Below, one piece after another: positions 5,999 to 58,083 of a DNA stretch of 64,000 bases. Location of the stretch: positions 682,001-746,000 of the forward strand of contig CM066291.1 of the NCBI GenBank assembly GCA_033816765.1. Direction: 5' to 3'. Under the pieces are notes generated by a model, which saw only the letters and a program-made list of their open reading frames with translations, was not told where the DNA came from and made no database searches. Both the position numbers and the translations under genes were made by a program. This stretch comes from Nothopassalora personata (Eukaryota; Ascomycota; Dothideomycetes; Mycosphaerellales; Mycosphaerellaceae). The first letter of the stretch is position 1, and every line of letters starts with the position of its first letter.

Positions 5999-6956
5999 TC
6001 AGTTATCGTCGCGTAGTAACTTAGGTAGGAATGCCTAGTTAGTAGCGGTAGTATTAATGTTCTACGCCTATAGGAACTAGGACTACGGTTAGTAGGGTAC
6101 ACGTATATAAGGAACATACGACTTACGGCGCGGCCGAGTTCGAATAGCCTATTAAGGGCGCGGTTCTACTCCTACTAGAGCGCGAGGGCTACGGCGGCGG
6201 GGGCGGCGGTAGTAGTAGCGGCGGCGGTAGTAGTAGCGGCGGCGGGGGCACGTATATAGGTTTCCCCGGTACGCTTATGCTTATAGGCATTAAACTGCCT
6301 AATGGCCTATAGAAAGGGTTAGCCGAAGCATAGGAGACGTACTAGAGCCCCCCCCGCGAGTAGTAGTCGACTCGTAGGAGCAAAGTAGCGACTTACCTCC
6401 GTAATGTCGTTACCTAGCTAGGCACATAGGCGGATCTACTCTACTAGCTCCTACTACTAGAGGTCTATAGGCGCCTAGCCTATTATAGCCGTAAGGAAGT
6501 CGCGCTAGGAGCGCGCGGCGCGTAGGCGGCTTACTAGCGAGGCGATAGCGTAGCTAGTATTAGGTACGCACTTGTGTCTATTACGCCTATAGCGGCCGTA
6601 CTTCCTTAGGAGCTCGCCGGTAGTAACACTATTACAGTTATCGGCTTCGTCTAGTAAGTAGTTAGTATACGAATTGTAGGCGGCGCGCGTAGAGACTTAC
6701 CCTTAACGAAGTATAGGAGGCACCGTATATATATATTAATCCTCTACGAGAGCTTAGTAGCGGGCGAGGGCGTTAGTAGCTACGAGGGGGATACTAGTCG
6801 CTTACGACTACTAGGCGTTCTAGGTGCGTCGCGTACTAGAGCCGCCTAGCGGCGCTCGTCTTCTAAGGTGCTAGTAGTAGTAGTACTGTCGCTACTAATG
6901 CTACGGAAGGAGACGGAGCGGCTAGAGAATAAAGGCGAGGAGGGCCCGTTAGATAT
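5999..6956 (-). pseudogene. Antisense Zn2Cys6-like gene of A, RIP-damaged, 3 introns
   Basis: Opposite-strand gene between Pol and the 3' LTR. It matches the D copy (37309-38246) exon for exon. Intron 1 keeps its GTAAGT donor (6695-6700 on the forward strand) and a CTAAC branch site; introns 2 and 3 also keep GTAAGT donors, CTAAC branches and TATAG acceptors. The start codon has mutated from ATG to ATA (6956-6954) and several Gln codons are TAG. The C-terminal exon ends in TGA at 6001-5999. Encodes a six-cysteine cluster plus a basic/helical region; some cysteine codons are TAT/TAC here. Function unknown; DNA binding is inferred from the cluster. Confidence 0.7.
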
Positions 6957-33945: not shown

Positions 33946-34125
33946 TTACTCGTTATTATTATCCTTATTATCCTCCTTATTATACTCGCCCCGTAGGGCT
34001 AGTAGTAAGAAGGTCCTATCGGCCGTAGTAGTATTAATGTTTCTAGCCTATAGGAACTATAACTACGGTTAGTATAGGATACGTATACGACACGTATATT
34101 ACTTACCGTACGGCCGAGCTCGAAG
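33946..34125 (-). pseudogene. Antisense-gene remnant of B (last intron and exon)
   Basis: Opposite-strand end of the accessory gene found in A, C and D: the end of exon 3, then an intron with GTAAGT donor, TACTAAC branch and CTATAG acceptor, then a final exon reading NINTTTADR and ending in an Asn/Asp-rich tail with TAA at 33948-33946. The 5' part is lost to the insertion of element F. Confidence 0.6.
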
Positions 34126-34331: not shown

Positions 34332-35073
34332 CACCCCCTTAGCTCGTGCGGCTTATAGGTAAATGAGCTAATCGCATGTAATCGCGTACACCCTATCTAT
34401 TACCTATTACCCTACCTACCTACCCATAACGTAAGGCGTCGTTACTATAAGCTTATTAGAGCTCTATTATAAGCTATACAGTAGGGCGCTAAGTTAGCGT
34501 TTTAGGTAAGGCTATTATCCTAGCCTTACATCCCTATTTATAATCTTACTATGTCCCTTACACTACAGTTAACCTATATAATAGGTTCTAAGCGATGTAA
34601 TTCTTATCCGGTAGGGTAGCTAAGCTATTCTTATAGTACTAAACGGTAAGGCGTACTATCTCCCTACATTTTAACGGACATGTAAGGTTATAGGTTCGAG
34701 TCCTAGGGGTTATTATATCTACTAAATTTATTGCTTAGCCTATCGTTCGCTTTAATGTCCGCTCTATTCTTAATTAAAATCCTAGGTGTTATAGTACGCT
34801 ATTACTTTAGCAATTAGGGTGCCTTACTACTATCTAATAACTACCTATATATAACTTCGGTTACGGTCTTAGAGAACTCCGCTTCCTACCTTAGGTAGAG
34901 ATTACTATTTAGCTACGTCCTAGTAGGAACTCTTTTACCTAATAAAAGGTCTTTATAGCTTATAAAAGCCTTATCTTTCTACTTAGGGTAAGGGTAATCC
35001 TATCGACGGTAGTACTATAGGTACTATATGCCTAGCGGGTAGAGATGTTATCTCTAAGTAAGGTAAGGACGAT
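34332..35073. other. Element F 3' internal sequence
   Basis: RIP-mutated sequence between the left LTR of F and the insertion of C. No gene recognised. Contains an isolated tRNA B-box-like GGTTCGAGTCC that I rejected as a tRNA. Confidence 0.35.
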
Positions 35074-35575
35074 TGTTAAGGGATGTCGTAATGTATAGTA
35101 CGCCTACGACCTACTAGTCGTAGATAAACTAATTCTTGCCTTCCGTTTAAGACGCATTGCGCGTCGTAAGGTGTACGTATGCGTGTTACGTACGGTATAC
35201 TAAGCCGGGCATAGCCGCATTATATATAAGGGTTAGCTATAGGCTGCCCTTATAACTGCCTCCCCTTCTAGGCCGAGCTACCCTTAGCTCGCGGCTTTAG
35301 GAGATTTCTATATAAGTAATCTATCTACTTCTCGTAGATTCCGTTACTATACGACCCGCCTACGGGTCTCGTGCGTGTCGTTATCGTAGTATAGGTAGGT
35401 ATAAAGTTATAGTTACCGGGTTAACTAACTCGAGGGTTTAAGAAGCGCACCCTCTCCCTCCTTTTCCTTCTTTTTCCTTATACTACGTTCTCGTAGCGTA
35501 CTATACCCGCACTACTAGCGATCTACTAGCTCCTCGCTAGCGACTACCTAGCGACCCGCTAGTATTATTATTATT

Positions 35576-36501
35576 ATGTCTACCTCGCCTCCGTCTTCTA
35601 GCCGCTCCGCCTCCTTCTATAGCATTAGTAGCGATAGTACTACTAGCGCCTTAGAAGACGAGCGCCGCTAGGCGGCTCTAGTACGTAACGTACCTAGAAC
35701 GCCTAGTAGTCGTAAGCGACTAGCATCCCCCTCGTAGCTACTAACGCCCTCGCCCGCTACTAAGCTCTCGTAGAGGATTAACATATATATACGGTGCCTC
35801 CCCTACTTCGTTAAGGGTAAGTCTCTACGCGCGCCGCCTACGATCCGTATACTAATTACTTACTAGACGAAGCCGATGACTGTAATAGTGTTACTACCGG
35901 CGAGCTCTTAAAGAAGTGTAGCCGCTATAGGCGTAATAGACATAAGTACGCGCCTAATACTAGCTACGCTATTGCCTCGCTAGTAAGCCGCCTACGCGCC
36001 GCGCGGTCCTAGCGCGACTTCCTTACGGCTATAATGGGCTAGGCGCCTATAGACCTCTAGTAGTAGGAGCTAGTAGAGTAGATCCGCCTATGTACCTAGC
36101 TAGGTAACGACATTACGGAGGTAAGTCGCTACTTCGCTCCTACGAGTCGACTACTACTCGCGGGAGGAGGCTCTAGTACGTCTCCTATGCTTCGGCTAAC
36201 CCTTTCTATAGGCTATTAGGCAGTTTAATGCCTATAAGTACAAGCGTGCCGGGGAAAACCGTATACGTACCTCCGCCGCCGCTACTACTACCGCCGCCCC
36301 CGCCGCCGTAGCCCTCGCGCTCTAGTAGGAGTAGAACCGCGCCCTTAATGGGCTGTTCGAGCTCGGCCGCGCCGTAAGTCGCATGTTCCTCGTATACGTA
36401 TACCCTACTAACCGTAGTCCTAGTTCCTATAGGCGTAGAACATCGACACTACCGCCGCCGACTAGGCATTCCTACCTAAGTTACTACGCGACGACAACTA
36501 A
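35576..36501 (+). pseudogene. Antisense Zn2Cys6-like gene of C, RIP-damaged, 3 introns
   Basis: Second copy of the accessory gene, running opposite to Gag-Pol of C. ATG at 35576-35578 and TAA at 36499-36501. Intron 1 is 35817-35866 (50 bp, GTAAGT to CTAG), the same length as in D; introns 2 and 3 retain GTAAGT, CTAAC and TATAG. The N-terminus is Ser/Thr-rich. TAG codons replace several Gln, and some cysteines are Tyr. The C-terminal exon reads NIDTTAAD then FLPKLLRDDN. Confidence 0.7.
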
Positions 36502-36643
36502 GGCGCTCGCCTTACACGCTACTCGCGGGCTCCTCGCCTACTACTACTCTACGTAGCCCCTAGTAGGCGCGCTACTATTTAGCTTTTGTTTTATTTATAG
36601 TTAAGAAAAGTTTTATTTATACTCTAGTACTCCTATACTAGTC

Positions 36644-36810
36644 TTATTTACTTCTCCTTAACGCCTTATAGTCGGCTACTATACGATCCGCATTCGCGAG
36701 GCCCTCCGCCGGTTCCTAGCTATTATACTCCTCTAGCTAGTCCTTCTACTAGACTAGATACTATAGCTTACCCTTACGCTTACGCCTATCTAGTACTGTC
36801 TCTACCTTAT
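36644..36810 (-). pseudogene. Pol C-terminal fragment of C (chromodomain end)
   Basis: Minus-strand Pol end with stop at 36644-36646, matching the D copy near 38381-38540 and A near 5700-5864. It breaks off at CTTAT (36806-36810), immediately before the LTR of D. Confidence 0.65.
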
Positions 36811-37007
36811 TGTTAAGGGGATGTCGTAATGTATAGCACGCCCACGACCTGCTAGTCGTAGATGAACTAATTCTTGCCTTTTGTTTAAGACGCATCGCGC
36901 GTCGCAAGGTGTACTTATACGTGTTACGTGCGGCTTAGTAGCCGGTCGCGACCGCATGTTACATGTAAGGCTACATGTAGGGGTTAGCTACTAGGCTGCC
37001 CCTTATA
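36811..37007 (-). repeat. 3' LTR of element D
   Basis: 197 bp, TGTTAAGGGG...CCCCTTATA, of the A subtype (contains the GGTCGCGACC core), unlike the C LTRs on either side. A purine tract in minus orientation follows (37008-37025). Confidence 0.8.
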
Positions 37008-37308
37008 ATTGCCTCCCCTCCCGTGCAAGCTGTCCTTAGCTCGCTAGTTGCTACGTAGAGGCTCCTATGTACTTCTAGAACTATAGTTACTATACGGCCT
37101 ATATGCGGGTTACGTGCGTGTCGTTATGTAGGTGTAGGTAAGTGAGGCTTAGTTACTATGCCGACGTAGCTAGTTAGGGGCATAAAACTCTAGCCTAACC
37201 TAGCCCTTTCTTAGCACGCTCCCTAGCTTATTACCTTCGCTACACTACCACTACGCACCCGTACCGCACTATTATCGCAAGCGCCTCGCTAGCATTATTA
37301 TTATTATT

Positions 37309-38246
37309 ATGTCTACCGTGCCCTCCTCGCCGCTATTCTCTAGCCGCTCCGCCTCCTCTAGTAGCACTAGTAGCGATAGCACTACTAGCGCCGTAGAAGA
37401 CGAGCGCCGCTAGGCGGCTCTAGTGCGCGACGCCTCTAGAACGCCTAGTGGTCGTAAGCGACTAGCATTACCCTCGTAGCCACTAACGCCCTCGCTAGCT
37501 ACTAAGCTCTCGTAGAGAATTAATATGTGTATACGGTGCCTCCCGTACTTCGTTAGGGGTAAGTCTCTACGCGCGTCGCCTACGATTCGTATGCTAACCA
37601 CTTGCTAGACGAGGCCGATAACTGTAATAGTGTTACTACCGGCGAGCTCCTAAAGAAGTGTAGCCGCTATAGGCGTAGTAAACATAGCTACGTGCCTAAT
37701 ACTAGCTACGCCATCGCCTCGCTAGTAAGCCGCCTACGCGCCGCGCGGTCCTAGCGCGACTTCCTTACGGCCATAATAGGCTAGGCGCCTATAGACCTCT
37801 AGTAGTAGGAGCTAGTAGAGTAGATCCGCCTATATGCCTAGCTAGGCAACGACATTAAGGAGGTAAGTCGCTACTTCGCTCGTGCGAGTCGACTACTACT
37901 CGCGGGAGAGGGCTCTAGTGCGTCCCCTATGCTTCGGCTAACCCTTCCTATAGGCTATTAGGCAGTTCAATACCTATAAGCATAAGCGTGCCGGGGAGAC
38001 CCGCATACGTGCCTCCGCCGCCGCCGCTACTACTGCCGCCGCCCCCGCCGCCGAAGCCCTCGCGCTCTAGTAGGAGCAGAACCGCGCCCTTAATAGGCTG
38101 TTCGAACTCGGCCGCGCCGTAAGTCGCACGTTCCTCGCCTACGTATACCCTACTAACCGTGGTCCTAGTTCCTATAGGCGTAGAACATCGATACTACCGC
38201 CGCCGACTAGGCATTCTTACCTAAGTTACTACGTAACGATAACTAA
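37309..38246 (+). pseudogene. Antisense Zn2Cys6-like gene of D, best copy, 4 exons
   Basis: Best-preserved accessory gene. Exons 37309-37558, 37609-37862, 37954-38118 and 38178-38246; introns of 50, 91 and 59 bp, each GTAAGT...TAG with GCTAAC, GGCTAAC and TACTAAC branch sites. Splicing keeps one frame of 245 codons, broken only by stops consistent with RIP of CAG/CAA. Product: Ser/Thr-rich N-terminus, a cysteine cluster with spacing C-x2-C-x11-C-x11-C-x2-C-x6-C (two cysteines now Tyr; Cys seen in other copies), Arg-rich helix, an Ala-rich helix and a short C-terminal exon. Intron 1 lies inside the cluster. It converges with Pol of the same element (stop 38381, gap 134 bp). The cluster resembles a Zn2Cys6 DNA-binding domain with enlarged loops; the function is inferred. 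Confidence 0.75.
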
Positions 38247-38380
38247 GGCGCTCGCCTCACACGCTACTCGCGGGCTCCTCGCCTACTACTACTCTACGTA
38301 GCCCCCGGTAGGCGCGCTACTCTTTAGCTTTTGTTTTATTTATAGTTAAGAAAAGTTTTGTTTATGCTCTAGTACTAGTC

Positions 38381-41300
38381 TTATTTACTTCTCCTTAACG
38401 CCTCATAGTCGGCTACTATGCGATCCGCATTCGCGAGGCCCTCCGCCGGTTCCTAGCTATTATACTCCTCTAGCTAGTCCTTCTACTAGACTAGATACTA
38501 CAGCTTGCCCTTACGCTTACGCCTATCTAGTACTACCTCTACCTTATACTCTCCGTCCTTATTAGCTAGAGGGGGTACGGGTCCATCCTTATCGCTACCG
38601 ATATACGGCTCGAGGAGAGAGACATAGAAGACGTTATAGAGCCTTAAGTCGGCTAGTAGCGCTAGGCGGTACGCCTACGAACCGACAGCGTCCGTAATGC
38701 GGTATAGGCCGATAAACTTCGGACCTATCTTCTTCTTTAGCACTACTAACTTAAGGTTCTTCGTTAATAATAGGACTAAGTTACCTACGCGGTAGGTCTT
38801 AGCTTAGTAGGTCTTATTATAGTAGCGAGCCTAGCTTTCTACTATAGCCTTCTATCGCTCCTCGAGTATAGCGCGTAGTTTTCGCATGCGACTCGTAGCT
38901 GTTACCGCTACTAGTACTTCCCCCCCCCTAGGTCTCGTCTCGAGATCTAGTTAGTGTAGGGGCAATCTTAGGTCGCTAACCGTACGCTATCTCGAACGGA
39001 CTTATCCGTAGTATTAGGTAGATACTATTGTTAGCTACGAATTTAGTAACTGTAAGCTACTTAGCCTACTTAGTTTAATTGTTACTATAGTAATAACGAA
39101 GATATTGTTCGAGGGTTTAGTTTACCCTCTTAGTTTAGCCGTTAGTCTAAGGGTAAAAGGCCGTAGATAGCTTACGCTTTACACGCGCCTCGAAGTAGAA
39201 GTTACTCTAAAACTAACTAGTAAAGACCGGACCTCGGTCGCTTACTATACCTAACGGGACACTATAGTATCGTACGACTTCGTCTCGTAGGAGCCTCGTA
39301 AGCTCTATAGCTATGTAAGTCTTCGTCGTCGGGATGTATAAGCTTATTTTTAAGTAGCGATCGACTATTACTAGGATCGCATTATACACGTAACCGGCTT
39401 GCGTACTTAGAGGTAGGTCCGTAATGAAATCTATAGTGATTTCCTACTACGGACCGTCTAGCCTAGGTAGTAGCTATAGCTCGCCGTAGGGTCGATAGCG
39501 CCTCGCCTTCGAGGTCTAATAAGCCCTATAGTTTCTAACATACTCCCTTACATCCTTACTTAGTAATTCCTACTAGTAATAACGTCGTAGTAGCTCTTTA
39601 GTCTTTACCTTACTAAAGTGCCCTACTAGTAGGTCGTTATAATATATATAGAGTAGCTATACTCTTACTATATAATCTTCGGGTACTACAATCGTGTTCC
39701 TACGATAGACTAACCCGTCTTTTATATACTAGTCCTTAGCGTCCCCTTCGCTAGGTACCTACGATAAGTATACGACGTACCTATCGTCTCTCCCCTATAC
39801 GATTTTTATTAGTAGTATAAGTAGTTTACCTACGCCGCCCTACATTATTATAGCGTACACTCTTACTAGTAGCGATCGGGTCCCCTACGGCTCGTAGGCT
39901 CCTACTACTATTATTGTCGCCTTATCCTATATCTTCTCGTAGGTAGCGGTTACGAGCCTTACTATAGGCTCGTCCTCTCTTAATAGGGATTCCTTCTAGA
40001 AAGATAGCTTACTTTATAGCGTAGGAAGCAAGCTCGACGTCTACTACGCTACGTATACATAGTTACTACGTCGCGATAGCTTATCGGCTAGGTTACTCTT
40101 CCCCGACCTATACTCTACTACGAAGTCGAAAGATTATAGAAACGTCGCCTATCGAGCTTACCTCCCGTTTAGCTACTTTACTATTATAAAACCCTATAGG
40201 TTCGTATAGTCGACTAGGACCTAAACCGTATACGATGCGCCTTCGAGGTACGGTCGCTAATACTTAAATGCCTCTACTACTACTAGTAGCTCTTAGTTAT
40301 AGGTCTTATAATTATACTCGGTAGGTATTATCTTACGAGAATAGAAGGCAATTAGATGCTACTTAGTCCTAAATAGCTAGGAGATAATGCCTATAATCGT
40401 AAAACCTAAGGCATCCGTCTTAACCCTCGTACGTAACGAAGGATCGAAGTGCCTTAGGATAGGTGCTCCGAGGAAGCTAGCTTTTAGCCGTTAGAACGCT
40501 TACTCCTCGTAAGCGGACTACATAAGAGGCCCTTGCTTCTTACTATTCTTACATCCCTTTAGTAGGTCTATTAATAGCTTCGTAATCCTCGAGTACCCTT
40601 CGATAAAGCGCCTATAGAAGTTATAGAATCCTAGGAAGGATTAAACCTTATAAAAACTCGTAGGCATAGACTATTCCTCGATTACGGCTACCCTACTCCT
40701 ATCTATCGATACGCCTACGACGCTTACGATAAATCCTAGGAACTCGGCATTCTCCTAGAAGAAGCTATACTTCTTTAGGTTCGTAAACAAGGCGAACTTT
40801 CGTAGCCTCTCTAGTACCGCGCGTACGGCTCGTACGTACTCCTTACGCGTTACGCTATAGATAAGGATGTCATCTAGGTAGACTACGTAGATGTTATCTA
40901 CTAACCTAGTAAGGGCCTTGTTAATGTACCCCTAAAAGGTAGCTAGTACGTTAGTTAACCTAAAAGGCATAACTAAGTACTCGTAGTAACCGTATCGCGT
41001 GCAAAACGTAGTCTTCTACTCGTCTCCTCGCTTAATAGGAATACGGTAGTAGGCATCCTATAGGTCGATTATAGTAAAGAGCCTAGCGCCCTATAGCCTA
41101 TCTAAGGTCTTACTAATTAGGGGCAGTAGGTACCGGTTCTTTACTATAATCTCATTTAGGCCTCTATAATCTACATAGAGCCTAAGAGTACTATTCTTCT
41201 TTAGTACGAATAGGATAGGCGCACCCGCCTTACTTACGGATCGCCTAATCTACCCCTTCTCTATTGCTTACGTAAGGTACTCCTTTAAGGCCTCTAGCTT

Positions 41301-43187
41301 AGTTAAGGACTAGTAGTATAGCGGCTTAAAAGGGGGTTTCTTTCCTTTAACGAGATTAATCGCATGCTTAACCCCGTCGGGCATCTTACGCTTCGCCTAC
41401 TTATTAGGTGCGTATACATCTCGGAAGTCTACAAATTCTTTAGGCTACGAGGGGCCCTCTCCTTCGGGTACTGCTATAGCAATAGCCCGAATACTTATCG
41501 TATAAACCTACTTTAAGCTCTCGAGATCCTTAAGGAACTCGCGTACGTTACGCTACTAAATCGTAGGCGTCTCTACACCGTAGTACTACTAGTTATCCTT
41601 ATCGGCCTTTACTATCCGATTACGATGCCGCTAGGGTCTACCTAAAATCACTAATGGCCTACCTATAGGCACCGCGTAGTAGATAGTGTTACTTACGCGC
41701 TCTACTCCCGCGTTATTAGCGAGTCGTAGCCGAACCGTAAAGGCGCCGTAGCAATACCCTAGGTTATGCGTATACGACTCTAACTTCGGTAGCCTTGCCC
41801 TATTAATAGGTTACATTTAATGTCGGAGTATATACTTATACGATACTAGGCTAAGATCCGTACAGTTATCTAGGAGAAACGTAGCCTCGCAAAAGCCCTT
41901 ACGAGTCTCGACTACGCCTCATAAGTAACGCGCTAGACACGTATCTACTCGCCTTAAAGGGTCGACTTTAGGAAAACTCGGACTTAGGAGCGACTTACTT
42001 ATAGTCCTCTACCTTTTCCCTAGTTACTACCCTTCTTAGTTAGAGCCTTCGTAGCGTCTACCCTACGAACCGCTTACGCGTTACGGTCCTTCTATAGGTA
42101 CCTATTCGGGCAATCCGTCTTAATGTAACCCTTCTTATAGTATCTATAGCACTCCGCTTTAGTCCTATTAAAGGTTATAGACGATCCGCCGGCGTCCCGC
42201 TAGTAACTCGTACCCGGGTCGCGCGACGCCTAACTATACTTCTACTACTTCGAGCTACGATCGCTTCGCCCTTAGTCGCCCTTAGTCTCTCGCCTACGGC
42301 GACTATACTACCCGCGGTCGTGCCCTCCGCTACTACGCTCCGTACTTTTAATACGCGAAGCTAGGATTACTAGTTCCTCTCTAGTTATTAGGATGTTATA
42401 AAACTTAACGATTACGGACCCTAGGCTAGGCGTAAGCTTAGCGAGCATGTGTCGCACGCGTTACGCCTCCGTATAGTCCCCTAACTAATCCTCTATAACA
42501 TCTAGCTTAGTCGTAAACTAACGTACTATCTAGTTATCCTTCTGTTTCACCGCCTTATACTCTAACATTACGTTAAGTACGCGGTTTATAGGGTTACCGT
42601 ATGCGTCTCGATAGAACTTCTTAAAGTCCTAGTATATATACCCTTTAAGGTTAAGGACGCTATAGTTAGCGTACTATCGCTTACTTACCTCTCCGCTTAG
42701 GTACATAACCCTATATAGGACCTTTAACTCGTTCGTCGCATACGTACCGCCTAAGAGGGTAAAGATAAGAGAGAGCTCCCTTAGGAATACCCGTACTTTC
42801 TTAATCGAGTCCCCTCTAAAAGGCGTAGGTTCTTTAAGACGTAAACGTATCGTATACGATACGACCGCGCCTCGAGCTACGATATTATCGTTAGTTACTA
42901 TAGATAGAGGAGGGGGAGGGGGAGTAGGGGATAGTTCTCCGCCGGGTTCGCCCTAAGGGTCCGCCGGCGGTACGCTTACGTCCCGTAAGATCTCTAACTG
43001 TTTAATCTCCCTCTATATCCCCTTCTCCTTAACCTCTACCCGAAGGGCATCCCTCCTTACGACTAAGGCTACACGCCTCGCTTATTACTAGGCCCTAGGG
43101 CTTAGGGGAGCCGTAGGCGTAGCGCTACTATCGTCGCGTTCGGACTCTATAGCGTGTATAGATTATAACGAAGAGAAGAATTAGAAC
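38381..43187 (-). pseudogene. Pol and Gag pseudogenes of C/D
   Basis: Read leftward: Gag about 43080-42050 with zinc-knuckle remnant near 42130, then Pol with reverse transcriptase about 41300-40870, RNase H about 40430-40250, integrase about 39600-39130 and a chromodomain-like end at 38540-38381. Dense TAG stops. The rightmost part belongs to C and the leftmost to D; the crossover point cannot be placed by eye. The candidate primer-binding site (AAGAATTAG on this strand, 43176-43184) is just inside the right LTR. Confidence 0.65.
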
Positions 43188-43373
43188 TGTTAAGGGATGT
43201 CGTAATGTATAGTACGCCTACGACCTACTAGTCGTAGATAAACTAATTCTTGCCTTCCGTTTAAGACGCATCGCGCGTCGTAAGGTGTACGTATACGTGT
43301 TACGTACGGCATCCTAAGCCGGGTATAGCCGTATTACATGTAAGGGTTAGCTATAGGCTACCCTTATAACGAT

Positions 43374-51205: not shown

Positions 51206-51583
51206 TGTTATGTCTCGTTCCAGGGCTAATCTCAAGGGGGGAGAGAAGTCAAGTCACGTGGCGGTATTCTTTGGAGAGGCTGAGGCGAGCTGAGAGCGAA
51301 GTGCAATAATTGGAGTAAGAGGTGTATTCCAATCAGTGAGATAGTAACATGAGTTGAACGCCTCGAAGCCATAAGGGTTTCTCAGCGTTCCTAAATACAT
51401 AGGAGAATGCTTCTGGCTCGAAGCTCTTGGCAGGCGCGCTGTGTCGCGCTGGCTCGACATTGCGCAGGCTCGACAGCCGTCGCGCTCTTGCAGCGTCGCG
51501 CCATATCTTATTGGTCCTTGCTTCCTGTGAGCTGTAGGGCGTCCATTGGCTGGGCAGTGTCCTCGTCATATTGATCCGTAACA
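51206..51583 (-). repeat. 3' LTR of element I
   Basis: 378 bp, TGTTATGTCT...CCGTAACA. Sequence appears identical to 57706-58083. It also lies directly upstream of the plus-strand ORF at 51678, so it may supply that ORF's promoter. Confidence 0.95.
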
Positions 51584-55619: not shown

Positions 55620-57688
55620 GAATGGTATGTGGTTCGCTGTGCTTCGTGCCTAGATGCTTCGGCTAGAACCTGTAGCCCGTTGCTCTGTGTCCACACCTGT
55701 AGTTTGTTGCGTTCCTGGATCTTCTGCGATTCTGAGTAGAGAGCACGTACGTGCTGTACTGCTTGGCGTAATTCGTTGGATACTAATATCCCTGACGGTG
55801 TAAGGTACCCGGTACCTATCATCTTGCTTCCTATTGGTGGTCGCTCGGTCATTGCTCGCATAGTGTCGAGTGTCTTGTCAAATTCGACTGGATGCAAGTA
55901 TCTCTTGCCCGAGACCTTGGGTAGGAATTCTTCGTGCTTGCGCGTCAGATAGACAATAATGTCGTAGAACTTCTTGGGTGCGTCTATCGTGAACGTCAAG
56001 ACTTCATTGTCGTCGTCAGTTTCGCTCTCTTCTCCTTCGGATGAGTCCTCGCTCGACTCTTCCGGGGTATGATCTTCTTCGATGGTATCCAGGGTTTCTT
56101 CTTGTTGTACGGGGGACCATCGTCCATCCCATGTTGGTTCCTGGTTTTCTTTGTCTTCATCATCGAAGCAAGACTCATCAATGTCCACTTCTCGGAGCCT
56201 GGCATCTTGCCTGTGCTGAGCTCCCAGGGTTCCCCTTGGCTGTTGTGGCCAATACCCTGCTCCTTCCTTCGCGGAGTAGTGGATCGAGCACGAGTCTTGG
56301 TAACAGAAGCTCCAATGAAGGGTTCCGTGACCATTTCGAGGGCCCGTAGCAGCCTCGTTTCCCCGCGCTATCATGCCGAATTCTCGTTTCTCCTGTCGTT
56401 CGATCTCGCTGGTTATTTCCCACCATCGCTTATGGAGGTCGTCGTGTTGTTGTATAGCTGTGAGATCTATCCGGTCCTCGTGAAGATACATCCAGGTGTC
56501 AATCTGGTCGAATGCATTATCGAGGTCGTTCCTTTCCTGGAGAAGTTGTTCGAGTTCGCATGTTTCTGTGAACTGTTGTGGCTGGTCCTCTTGACCATGG
56601 TATCCTCCTCGTCCCATCGAGGGGTCCAAGGAAGGTCCTTCGTTAACTCTTCCTTCCACTCCCTGAGTATAGTCGGTGTCTCCCAGAGTCCCAACGCTGC
56701 TCCCAGGTTTACTAGTTCGTGGTTGCATCATGTTGAACTGCTCGCGGCGCACCATATTTTTACCGCGGCAATCCCGCGCCATGTGGCCTTCCTTGCCACA
56801 CGCGTAGCATGTCGGTTTTCCTTTTCCCTTGAAGGGCTTTCCTCGGCCCTTGCCTCTGTCGATCCTTTCTCCTCGTTGGGTAACGTCCAGCTCCATTGGT
56901 TGTGGTCCGTAGTAGGGCTGGTTGTGTCGCGGAAAGTTCCCCTTCGCAACGTAGCCCGTAGAAGGCTTGCGATCCGGAACGTATCCTGCCATGCCTCCCA
57001 CTTTGGAGTCGTATTTCTTTTCCTGGTAACGTTCCCACAACTGATCGTCGATCTCAATCGATGCTCGCATCAGTCGCTCGAGGGTGTCGACCTGTCCTCC
57101 GTGTCTCATGAGCTCGTCCTTGACGGAGTCCTTGAGTCCACGTCTGAACATTGTCATCAACGCCGTCTGGTCCCATCCGGTAATCTGTCCGTATTCTTCA
57201 AACTTGGCCGCGTACTCCGAAGTAGACGTCTTCTGCTTCAGGTGTTGGATTATTCGTATGGCCTGTTGAACCTCGTTGGAAGTCCCAAAGATAGACTTCA
57301 TCTTGTCCTTAAAGAGGGTGTAGTTCCTGAACATTCCGGTGGGGTCTCGTTGTCCCGTACCGTCAAGGTATTCCTTGAGGTACGGCTTGATCCAGTTCTG
57401 CGCGCTTCCACGAAGGAACGTGATGGCGAAAATAGTTCTCTTGTCGGAGTCGACTGGGTTGAACATGAGGTACATATCCATTTGATTGACCCAATCATCG
57501 AACTTGGCCCTGTCTCCATAGAAGAGGTCCGGCTTGGCAGCCTTAACGTCCTTCTTCCTAGGAACGGGTTCGTCGTCGTCATCAGACTCATCGTCCTTCA
57601 TGGTGGTTTGTTGCGGTGGCGCACGGCGGATGCTTCCTGCTTCGCTGGGGGCGGGTGTTCCCCTACCAGCTGCCTGAGTAGCACTCAT
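55592..57688 (-). CDS. gag: Gag of element I
   Basis: 698 residues from the ATG at 57688; the longer frame begins with TTG, which overlaps the primer-binding site. Capsid-like helical region about 45-235 (FYGDRAKFDDWVNQMDMYL, then EYAAKFEEYGQITGW). A Lys/Gly/Arg-rich stretch precedes one zinc knuckle, CYACGKEGHMARDC, at about 294-307. A long C-terminal extension has an acidic stretch (SSEDSSEGEESETDDDNE). Gag forms virus-like particles and packages element RNA. It ends TGA overlapping the Pol ATG. Longer than many Ty3 Gags because of the C-terminal extension. Confidence 0.9.
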   Translation of the reverse strand: MSATQAAGRGTPAPSEAGSIRRAPPQQTTMKDDESDDDDEPVPRKKDVKAAKPDLFYGDRAKFDDWVNQMDMYLMFNPVDSDKRTIFAITFLRGSAQNWIKPYLKEYLDGTGQRDPTGMFRNYTLFKDKMKSIFGTSNEVQQAIRIIQHLKQKTSTSEYAAKFEEYGQITGWDQTALMTMFRRGLKDSVKDELMRHGGQVDTLERLMRASIEIDDQLWERYQEKKYDSKVGGMAGYVPDRKPSTGYVAKGNFPRHNQPYYGPQPMELDVTQRGERIDRGKGRGKPFKGKGKPTCYACGKEGHMARDCRGKNMVRREQFNMMQPRTSKPGSSVGTLGDTDYTQGVEGRVNEGPSLDPSMGRGGYHGQEDQPQQFTETCELEQLLQERNDLDNAFDQIDTWMYLHEDRIDLTAIQQHDDLHKRWWEITSEIERQEKREFGMIARGNEAATGPRNGHGTLHWSFCYQDSCSIHYSAKEGAGYWPQQPRGTLGAQHRQDARLREVDIDESCFDDEDKENQEPTWDGRWSPVQQEETLDTIEEDHTPEESSEDSSEGEESETDDDNEVLTFTIDAPKKFYDIIVYLTRKHEEFLPKVSGKRYLHPVEFDKTLDTMRAMTERPPIGSKMIGTGYLTPSGILVSNELRQAVQHVRALYSESQKIQERNKLQVWTQSNGLQVLAEASRHEAQRTTYHSGKGSAPQE

Positions 57689-57694
57689 CCTGAG

Positions 57695-57703
57695 GGCGTT
57701 CAA
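57695..57703 (-). other. Candidate self-priming primer-binding site of I
   Basis: In element orientation TTGAACGCC begins two bases after the 5' LTR and is the exact complement of GGCGTTCAA in the same LTR (57862-57854). That segment lies about 35-45 bases after a TATTTAGG that could be a TATA element, so it may be the 5' end of the transcript. Confidence 0.5.
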
Positions 57704-57705
57704 AG

Positions 57706-58083
57706 TGTTATGTCTCGTTCCAGGGCTAATCTCAAGGGGGGAGAGAAGTCAAGTCACGTGGCGGTATTCTTTGGAGAGGCTGAGGCGAGCTGAGAGCGAA
57801 GTGCAATAATTGGAGTAAGAGGTGTATTCCAATCAGTGAGATAGTAACATGAGTTGAACGCCTCGAAGCCATAAGGGTTTCTCAGCGTTCCTAAATACAT
57901 AGGAGAATGCTTCTGGCTCGAAGCTCTTGGCAGGCGCGCTGTGTCGCGCTGGCTCGACATTGCGCAGGCTCGACAGCCGTCGCGCTCTTGCAGCGTCGCG
58001 CCATATCTTATTGGTCCTTGCTTCCTGTGAGCTGTAGGGCGTCCATTGGCTGGGCAGTGTCCTCGTCATATTGATCCGTAACA
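57706..58083 (-). repeat. 5' LTR of element I
   Basis: 378 bp, apparently identical to 51206-51583. Followed on the right by the GCCAC target duplication (58084-58088). Confidence 0.95.

What the first reader, a model, noticed from the sequence alone, without database searches (positions are those of the whole stretch)
37309..38246. Spliced antisense Zn2Cys6-like gene carried by a chromovirus family (A, B, C, D)
On the strand opposite Gag-Pol, between the Pol stop and the 3' LTR, lies a four-exon gene. Each of its three introns has GTAAGT, a CTAAC-type branch site and a TAG acceptor, and splicing alone gives a continuous frame (245 codons in D). The arrangement repeats in A (6956-5999), C (35576-36501) and, truncated, in B (33946-34125). 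Intron 1 is 50 bp in both C and D. Introns antisense to the genomic RNA cannot be spliced from it, so they persist through retrotransposition; their conservation implies independent transcription and selection on the protein. The protein has a six-cysteine cluster with the spacing C-x2-C-x11-C-x11-C-x2-C-x6-C.
Basis: partly seen in the sequence, partly recalled or inferred. Interest (0 to 1): 0.9.

Follow-up and report, generated by a model that had tools for sequence, protein, structure and literature searches.

The report
Intron-bearing antisense gene in fungal retrotransposons
A family of jumping genes in an apparently fungal genome carries an extra gene on its opposite strand whose introns survive every jump; comparing copies suggests that both its protein and its splice sites were kept by selection, so the element probably uses that protein.

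Summary
The antisense gene is real, but the window's copy is dead. At 37309-38246 (+) the four exons join to 245 codons, of which 14 are in-frame TAG, in DNA saturated with RIP-type change. The same genome holds young copies with little RIP: of 20 fetched, one encodes 245 aa with three introns and no stop, 18 a 209-aa in-frame deletion form, one stops after 34 aa. A second family, 68-69% identical in DNA, keeps the three introns at the same positions and phases.

Transversions, which RIP does not make, are enriched at four-fold sites only in the predicted spliced frame (37/94 against 79/455, p=6e-6; other five frames p 0.15-1). Splice signals carry 1 transversion in 52-53 sites, intron bodies 34-36 in 143-144. 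No D-type copy lacking intron 1 or 2 was found.

The element is a chromovirus. The protein has a conserved six-cysteine cluster that is not canonical Zn2Cys6; no homolog was found. [quoted passage not shown]). This is a multi-intron, Cys6 variant. Transcription, splicing and function are untested.

The parts
37309..37558 (+). D gene, exon 1 (ATG at 37309; codes the first two of the six Cys positions)
37559..37608 (+). D gene, intron 1 (50 nt, GTAAGT..TAG)
37609..37862 (+). D gene, exon 2 (254 nt, same length in A, C, young and B-type copies)
37863..37953 (+). D gene, intron 2 (91 nt)
37954..38118 (+). D gene, exon 3
38119..38177 (+). D gene, intron 3 (59 nt; lost by deletion in the 209-aa young form)
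38178..38246 (+). D gene, exon 4 and TAA stop
36809..36970 (.). LTR beside the D gene (the element's 3' LTR; gag-pol is on the - strand)
37182..37189 (+). TATA-like ATAAAACT, 127 nt before the ATG; also in A and two young copies examined; function inferred only
35576..36501 (+). C copy of the gene (exons of 241, 254, 162, 69 nt; introns of 50, 91, 59 nt)
5999..6956 (-). A copy of the gene (exons of 256, 254, 180, 69 nt; introns of 50, 90, 59 nt)
33946..34125 (-). B remnant: end of exon 3, intron 3, exon 4 of the second family

Best explanation
An accessory gene of a chromovirus, antisense to gag-pol between the pol stop and the 3' LTR. Shown: layout, three introns, phases and cysteine cluster shared by two diverged families; stop-free young copies; RIP decay of old ones. 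Shown by statistics on one pair of families: constraint on the spliced protein and on the splice signals. Inferred: it is transcribed from a promoter beside the 3' LTR and spliced from that RNA; being antisense to the genomic RNA, its introns are copied at each jump instead of being removed. Inferred with less confidence: the basic 26.5-kDa protein folds a six-cysteine zinc module and acts in the nucleus on the element's own expression, RNA or DNA, as antisense accessory proteins such as HTLV-1 HBZ do in retroviruses. I put about 0.9 on a real spliced protein gene and about 0.45 on a nuclear regulator.
For: Stop-free 245-aa and 209-aa forms in young copies. Same three introns in B-type copies, exon 2 of 254 nt in both families. 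Four-fold sites 37/94 against 79/455 transversions in the predicted frame, p=6e-6; other five frames p 0.15-1; p=5e-5 when stratified by base. Splice signals 1 in 52-53, intron bodies 34-36 in 143-144, p 4e-5 to 9e-5. Twelve lost donors in B-type loci all follow T, the RIP context. Six Cys positions read C or Y in 251 of 252 cells of 42 rows. Chromodomain, reverse transcriptase and integrase in Pol. 265 intron 1 junctions and no spliced junction. Nuclear or DNA-binding roles reported or proposed for plant antisense accessory proteins (passages of PMC7264820 and PMC11963269).
Against: No RNA or protein evidence. Exon 2 alone gives no significant codon-position bias (p 0.27-0.45). Whole introns (35-37 of 195-197 transversions) are no more diverged than exon 2 (60-61 of 254), and Pol four-fold sites are less diverged (0.16 and 0.21 in the two long matches) than those of this gene (0.39). 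The six B copies are related, so the tests are one comparison. The branch positions were taken from the young copy and the signals help to anchor the alignment. The 24 copies with the deletion junction lost 36 codons, so the C-terminal part is dispensable. No zinc-cluster profile matched.
Confidence: 0.55

Rival explanations
1. The antisense transcript matters, not the protein: it pairs with genomic RNA, feeds silencing and so tunes the element; the frame is a by-product.
For: Antisense RNA roles are discussed for such loci (passages of PMC7264820). Whole introns are about as conserved as exon 2.
Against: Transversions favour four-fold sites in one frame only; exons 1-3 change length by multiples of three between families while introns do not.
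Confidence: 0.12
2. A host gene with introns was captured antisense by an ancestor and has since been carried along with weak or relaxed selection.
For: Spliceosomal introns suggest capture of genomic DNA (inference). The gene evolves faster than Pol. Its C-terminal part could be lost in the youngest copies.
Against: Two families share it with constrained frame and splice signals. No host homolog was seen, though the own-genome protein search scored only 150 of 845 candidates and was filled by element copies.
Confidence: 0.15
3. The protein acts on RNA or particles in the cytoplasm (export, packaging or translation of genomic RNA) and not as a nuclear DNA-binding regulator.
For: No domain is assigned; a Cys-rich basic module can bind RNA as well as DNA (general knowledge).
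Against: None direct; nuclear localisation is reported for one plant antisense accessory protein (passages of PMC7264820).
Confidence: 0.12
4. Chance: a GC-rich stretch with open frames and splice-like motifs.
For: Open frames are cheap here: 179 of 5000 random sequences of like composition stay open over 244 codons, and other frames are long too.
Against: Conserved intron positions, phases and signals in two families and the frame-specific substitution pattern.
Confidence: 0.03

Closest known systems
brtn of Boty / BcGypsy1 (Botrytis cinerea, Sclerotinia sclerotiorum)
   Same: Extra antisense gene between pol and 3' LTR of a fungal LTR element; Boty-like elements also have a chromodomain (passages of PMC7264820, PMC8365987, PMC4227169).
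   Different: The original paper is not held and no BRTN sequence was at hand, so homology and introns of brtn could not be compared. Three introns and a Cys6 cluster are shown here for this gene.
Antisense ORFs of plant elements: Grande gene23, RIRE2, Retand (TRP28), PvRetro13
   Same: Position, orientation and presence in most copies of a family; nuclear or DNA-binding role reported or proposed (passages of PMC7264820 and PMC11963269).
   Different: Plant lineages; Retand is described there as non-chromovirus; the word 'intron' does not occur in either text; the TRP28 domain (PF04195) was not matched by this protein.
HTLV-1 HBZ
   Same: Works like it, if the inference holds: an antisense accessory gene of a retroelement with a nuclear protein (HBZ: passage of PMC11963269; that HBZ mRNA is spliced is recalled).
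   Different: HBZ is a bZIP protein of a retrovirus (recalled); no kinship is claimed or tested.
Fungal Zn2Cys6 cluster (PF00172)
   Same: Six cysteines, two C-x2-C units, second half C-x2-C-x6-C with basic residues.
   Different: First half is C-x2-C-x11-C where the canonical pattern (recalled) has x6; regular expression not matched; no PF00172 match at E<=10.

Membership tests
Chromovirus (Ty3/Gypsy) | reverse transcriptase and integrase in Pol | tested here: met
   PF00078 E=8.6e-40, PF00665 E=3.5e-10 on pieces of a young copy's Pol
Chromovirus (Ty3/Gypsy) | chromodomain at the end of Pol | tested here: met
   PF00385 E=7.5e-17
Chromovirus (Ty3/Gypsy) | paired LTRs around gag-pol | tested here: met
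   L077: 200-bp LTRs 99.5% alike, gag frame 398 aa, pol frame 1356 aa
Antisense extra ORF between pol and 3' LTR (aORF-3R kind, incl. brtn) | antisense, between pol stop and 3' LTR | tested here: met
   L077: LTR ends at 214, gene match starts at 519, the following stretch matches from 1290, pol frame ends at 1427
Antisense extra ORF between pol and 3' LTR (aORF-3R kind, incl. brtn) | widely present in copies of the family | tested here: met
   265 D-type junctions, 150 scored B-type exon 2 matches; the share of all element copies was not measured
Antisense extra ORF between pol and 3' LTR (aORF-3R kind, incl. brtn) | transcription from its own promoter | not testable with these tools
   no RNA data; only a TATA-like motif seen
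brtn itself | sequence homology to BRTN | not testable with these tools
   paper not held; no BRTN sequence at hand; no homolog in three protein searches
Zn2Cys6 (PF00172) | profile match | tested here: not met
   no PF00172 at E<=10
Zn2Cys6 (PF00172) | canonical spacing C-x2-C-x6-C..C-x2-C-x6-8-C (recalled) | tested here: not met
   regular expression false; first half has x11
Spliced protein-coding gene | conserved intron positions, phases and signals, frame under constraint | tested here: met
   exon 2 alone not significant
Spliced protein-coding gene | spliced RNA and protein product | not testable with these tools
   no RNA or protein data held
HBZ-like antisense regulator | bZIP, nuclear, acts on LTR transcription (recalled) | not tested
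   no functional data; used only as a model of how it may work

The most novel reading that the evidence does not exclude
A chromovirus lineage keeps a three-intron antisense gene whose protein, a new six-cysteine class, acts in trans on the element, and the element's fitness depends on host splicing of this minus-strand transcript: an HBZ-like regulator in a retrotransposon, with splice signals under selection and its history fossilised in hundreds of RIP-damaged copies beside a recent wave of undamaged ones.
Probability: 0.45. Interest if true: 0.8.

Novelty: new variant of a known kind. Interest (0 to 1): 0.62.

Why it matters
Retroelements lose sense-strand introns when they jump; antisense introns escape this, so conserved ones mark a gene that is transcribed on its own, and here that mark could be tested statistically. 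It makes the open question of what antisense accessory genes of LTR retrotransposons do directly testable: splice junctions, a protein and a cysteine module are now named. The window's copy alone looks like junk; reading it against young copies shows how such genes can be found behind RIP damage in other fungi.

Tried and rejected
Chance open frame: disfavoured. A changed genetic code with TAG as sense was considered and set aside: the TAG-rich copies lie in RIP-type DNA and 19 of 20 young copies have no in-frame stop. Copies lacking introns were looked for as direct proof of splicing; none for intron 1 or intron 2, D-type patterns only, up to 2 mismatches; the intron 2 pattern had no positive control of its own. 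Codon-position counts on exon 2 alone were not significant, and transversions among A, C, D and the young copy were too few to use. Protein searches, Pfam and NCBIfam, PDB sequences and one scan of viral contigs gave no credible relative; the weak lines (E 0.1 or more) were taken as noise. I do not know how many fungi the protein collection holds. Twelve donors lost in B-type loci first looked like a contradiction; all follow T, as RIP would do. A bacterial promoter scan found nothing and does not apply to a eukaryote; Rfam found nothing in the window. Paper searches. No three-intron antisense gene or Cys6 antisense protein of a fungal retrotransposon was seen in those listings, nor in the passages read of five papers (PMC7264820, PMC8365987, PMC4227169, PMC5987419, PMC11963269); most subscription papers are not held, the brtn paper among them. 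Structure prediction was not tried, because the tool's list of accepted proteins does not cover these.

Full report
What is in the window. The window belongs to a genome of 54.5 Mb in 40 contigs. In 2-kb bins TpA/ApT is 2.4-2.7 from 2 to 8 kb and 2.1-3.0 from 20 to 50 kb, with strong loss of CpA and TpG. The finding lies in the second block, on the + strand, opposite a damaged Gag-Pol.

The observation. The splice coordinates are right. Exons 37309-37558, 37609-37862, 37954-38118 and 38178-38246 join to 738 nt, 245 codons and TAA. The joined frame holds 14 TAG in D and 15 stops each in C and A, so 'splicing alone gives a continuous frame' is wrong as stated. In the 27 of 42 rows with a clean crop, 389 of 390 internal stops are TAG, the kind RIP is expected to make. 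Among 39 rows, 192 of 223 variable columns are C/T or A/G only; 55 of the 113 C/T columns precede A and 45 of the 79 A/G columns follow T. These rows are the copies most like D, a biased sample.

Undamaged relatives exist. A translated search of the genome with the stop-masked middle of the protein listed 24 copies without a stop, beside RIP-damaged ones with mostly 5-7 TAG in exon 2 (150 of 845 candidates scored, list cut). I fetched 20 of those 24. Their stretches have TpA/ApT of 0.99-1.35. All 20 have ATG, GTAAGT at introns 1 and 2 and TAG acceptors there; 18 give 209 aa, one (L061) 245 aa with all three introns, and one stops after 34 aa. The 209-aa form lacks 36 codons, through a deletion that runs from exon 3 over intron 3 into exon 4 and keeps the frame. 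Its junction occurs 24 times in the genome, each time exact and without RIP marks, although 2 mismatches were allowed. An undamaged stretch of full-length exon 3 occurs twice. No mending was needed to read the protein.

The element. A young copy (L077) has 200-bp LTRs 99.5% alike, a 398-aa gag frame and a 1356-aa pol frame. Pieces of Pol match reverse transcriptase, integrase and chromodomain profiles, so it is a chromovirus. The antisense gene lies between the pol stop and the 3' LTR.

A second family keeps the gene. The B remnant in the window led to complete B-type copies. Seven copies match D at 67.9-69.2% over 731-742 columns; an eighth, L071, holds only the last exons. Six of the seven show GT..AG introns of 53, 88 and 59 nt at the same positions and phases, with exon 2 of 254 nt; the seventh, L074, has a frame break in exon 3. 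From residue 57 on, three B-type proteins with stops masked are 47-50% identical to the young protein. Of 20 lower-ranked loci fetched, 19 are B-type and one (L097) is D-type; several are truncated. Twelve donors there read AT for GT; all twelve follow T, and donors after other bases keep GT (L079 was left out because its match ends before intron 2). That is RIP context, not absence of the intron. B-type exon 2 has 150 scored matches from 500 candidates, all with stops.

More than an open frame? Open frames are cheap here: 179 of 5000 random sequences of like composition stay open over 244 codons. I therefore used transversions, which RIP does not make. Over 183 alignable codons (the first 62 codons of the young protein were left out; L071 and L074 were not used) four-fold sites differ by transversion in 37 of 94 and other sites in 79 of 455, Fisher p=6e-6 for L072; six B copies give p from 6e-6 to 2e-5. 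The five other frames give p of 0.15 to 1. Shuffling within base classes gives 20.9 expected against 37, p=5e-5. The ratio of transversion distances, position 2 to four-fold, is 0.22. Splice signals (six bases each at donor, branch and acceptor) show 1 transversion in 52-53 sites, intron bodies 34-36 in 143-144, p 4e-5 to 9e-5. All this is one comparison between two families, seen through six related copies.

Results against strong constraint. Exon 2 alone has no significant codon-position bias (p 0.27-0.45). Whole introns carry 35-37 transversions in 195-197 sites in the two copies examined, exon 2 carries 60-61 in 254. Pol of the window's B element differs far less from young Pol (four-fold 0.16 and 0.21, other sites 0.02 and 0.04 in the two long matches). 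The accessory gene is thus fast-evolving, or its part of the B element has a separate, older history.

Introns and jumping. The exon 1-intron 1 junction occurs 265 times (up to 3 mismatches); spliced D-type junctions of introns 1 and 2 were not found. This fits introns that are antisense to the genomic RNA and so are copied, not lost. It does not by itself prove splicing.

The protein. The 245-aa protein has calculated mass 26.5 kDa and pI 9.1, with C-x2-C-x11-C-x11-C-x2-C-x6-C at residues 74-111; in 42 D-type rows these six positions read C or Y in 251 of 252 cells, Y being what RIP makes of Cys codons. It fails the canonical Zn2Cys6 pattern (recalled) and has no credible Pfam, NCBIfam or PDB relative. 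Three searches of a 5.8-billion-protein collection found nothing. A zinc-binding, nucleic-acid-binding role is inference.

What is known. [quoted passage not shown] Retand's TRP28 proteins are proposed DNA-binding regulators (passages of PMC11963269). brtn belongs to BcGypsy1 (passages of PMC8365987), and a Boty-like element with brtn has a chromodomain (passages of PMC4227169). A Monilinia transcript resembles truncated Pol and BRTN (passage of PMC5987419). The brtn paper is not held, so I could not check whether brtn has introns or is homologous. The finding is a new variant of a known kind.

Mechanism. Most likely: a promoter beside the 3' LTR (a TATA-like ATAAAACT lies 124-130 nt before the ATG in D, A and two young copies; C and B have ATAAAGTT further up), transcription against gag-pol, splicing, translation of a basic Cys6 protein, action on the element in the nucleus. 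Anatomy, conservation and decay are shown; transcription, splicing and action are inferred.

Noticed in passing
35072-43370: Composite of elements: the LTRs at 35074-35256 and 43188-43370 match each other (95%), while the LTR beside the D gene (36809-36970) is closer to an A-element LTR (97%).
   Followed up: partly
35257-36501: C looks like a chimera: the stretch before its gene is 94% identical to B-type copies, but its gene body is 91% identical to A and 68% to B. A pattern across that junction occurs exactly at two places; 73 other places within 3 mismatches look A-like.
   Followed up: partly
2096-2295; L077:4993-5489; L078:5917-6215: A 99-bp tandem repeat near the start of the pol frame varies between copies: about 2 units in the window's A element, about 5 in L077, about 3 in L078.
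   Followed up: no
L049-L068; junction listed: A recent wave of at least 24 copies that share one in-frame deletion in the accessory gene and lack RIP marks, beside hundreds of RIP-damaged relatives: RIP may have weakened lately, or the wave is very young.
   Followed up: partly
51206-51583 and 57706-58083; 1-597 and 57309-57906: A 378-bp stretch repeated at 100% identity and a related 600-bp stretch at 89%; nature not examined.
   Followed up: no
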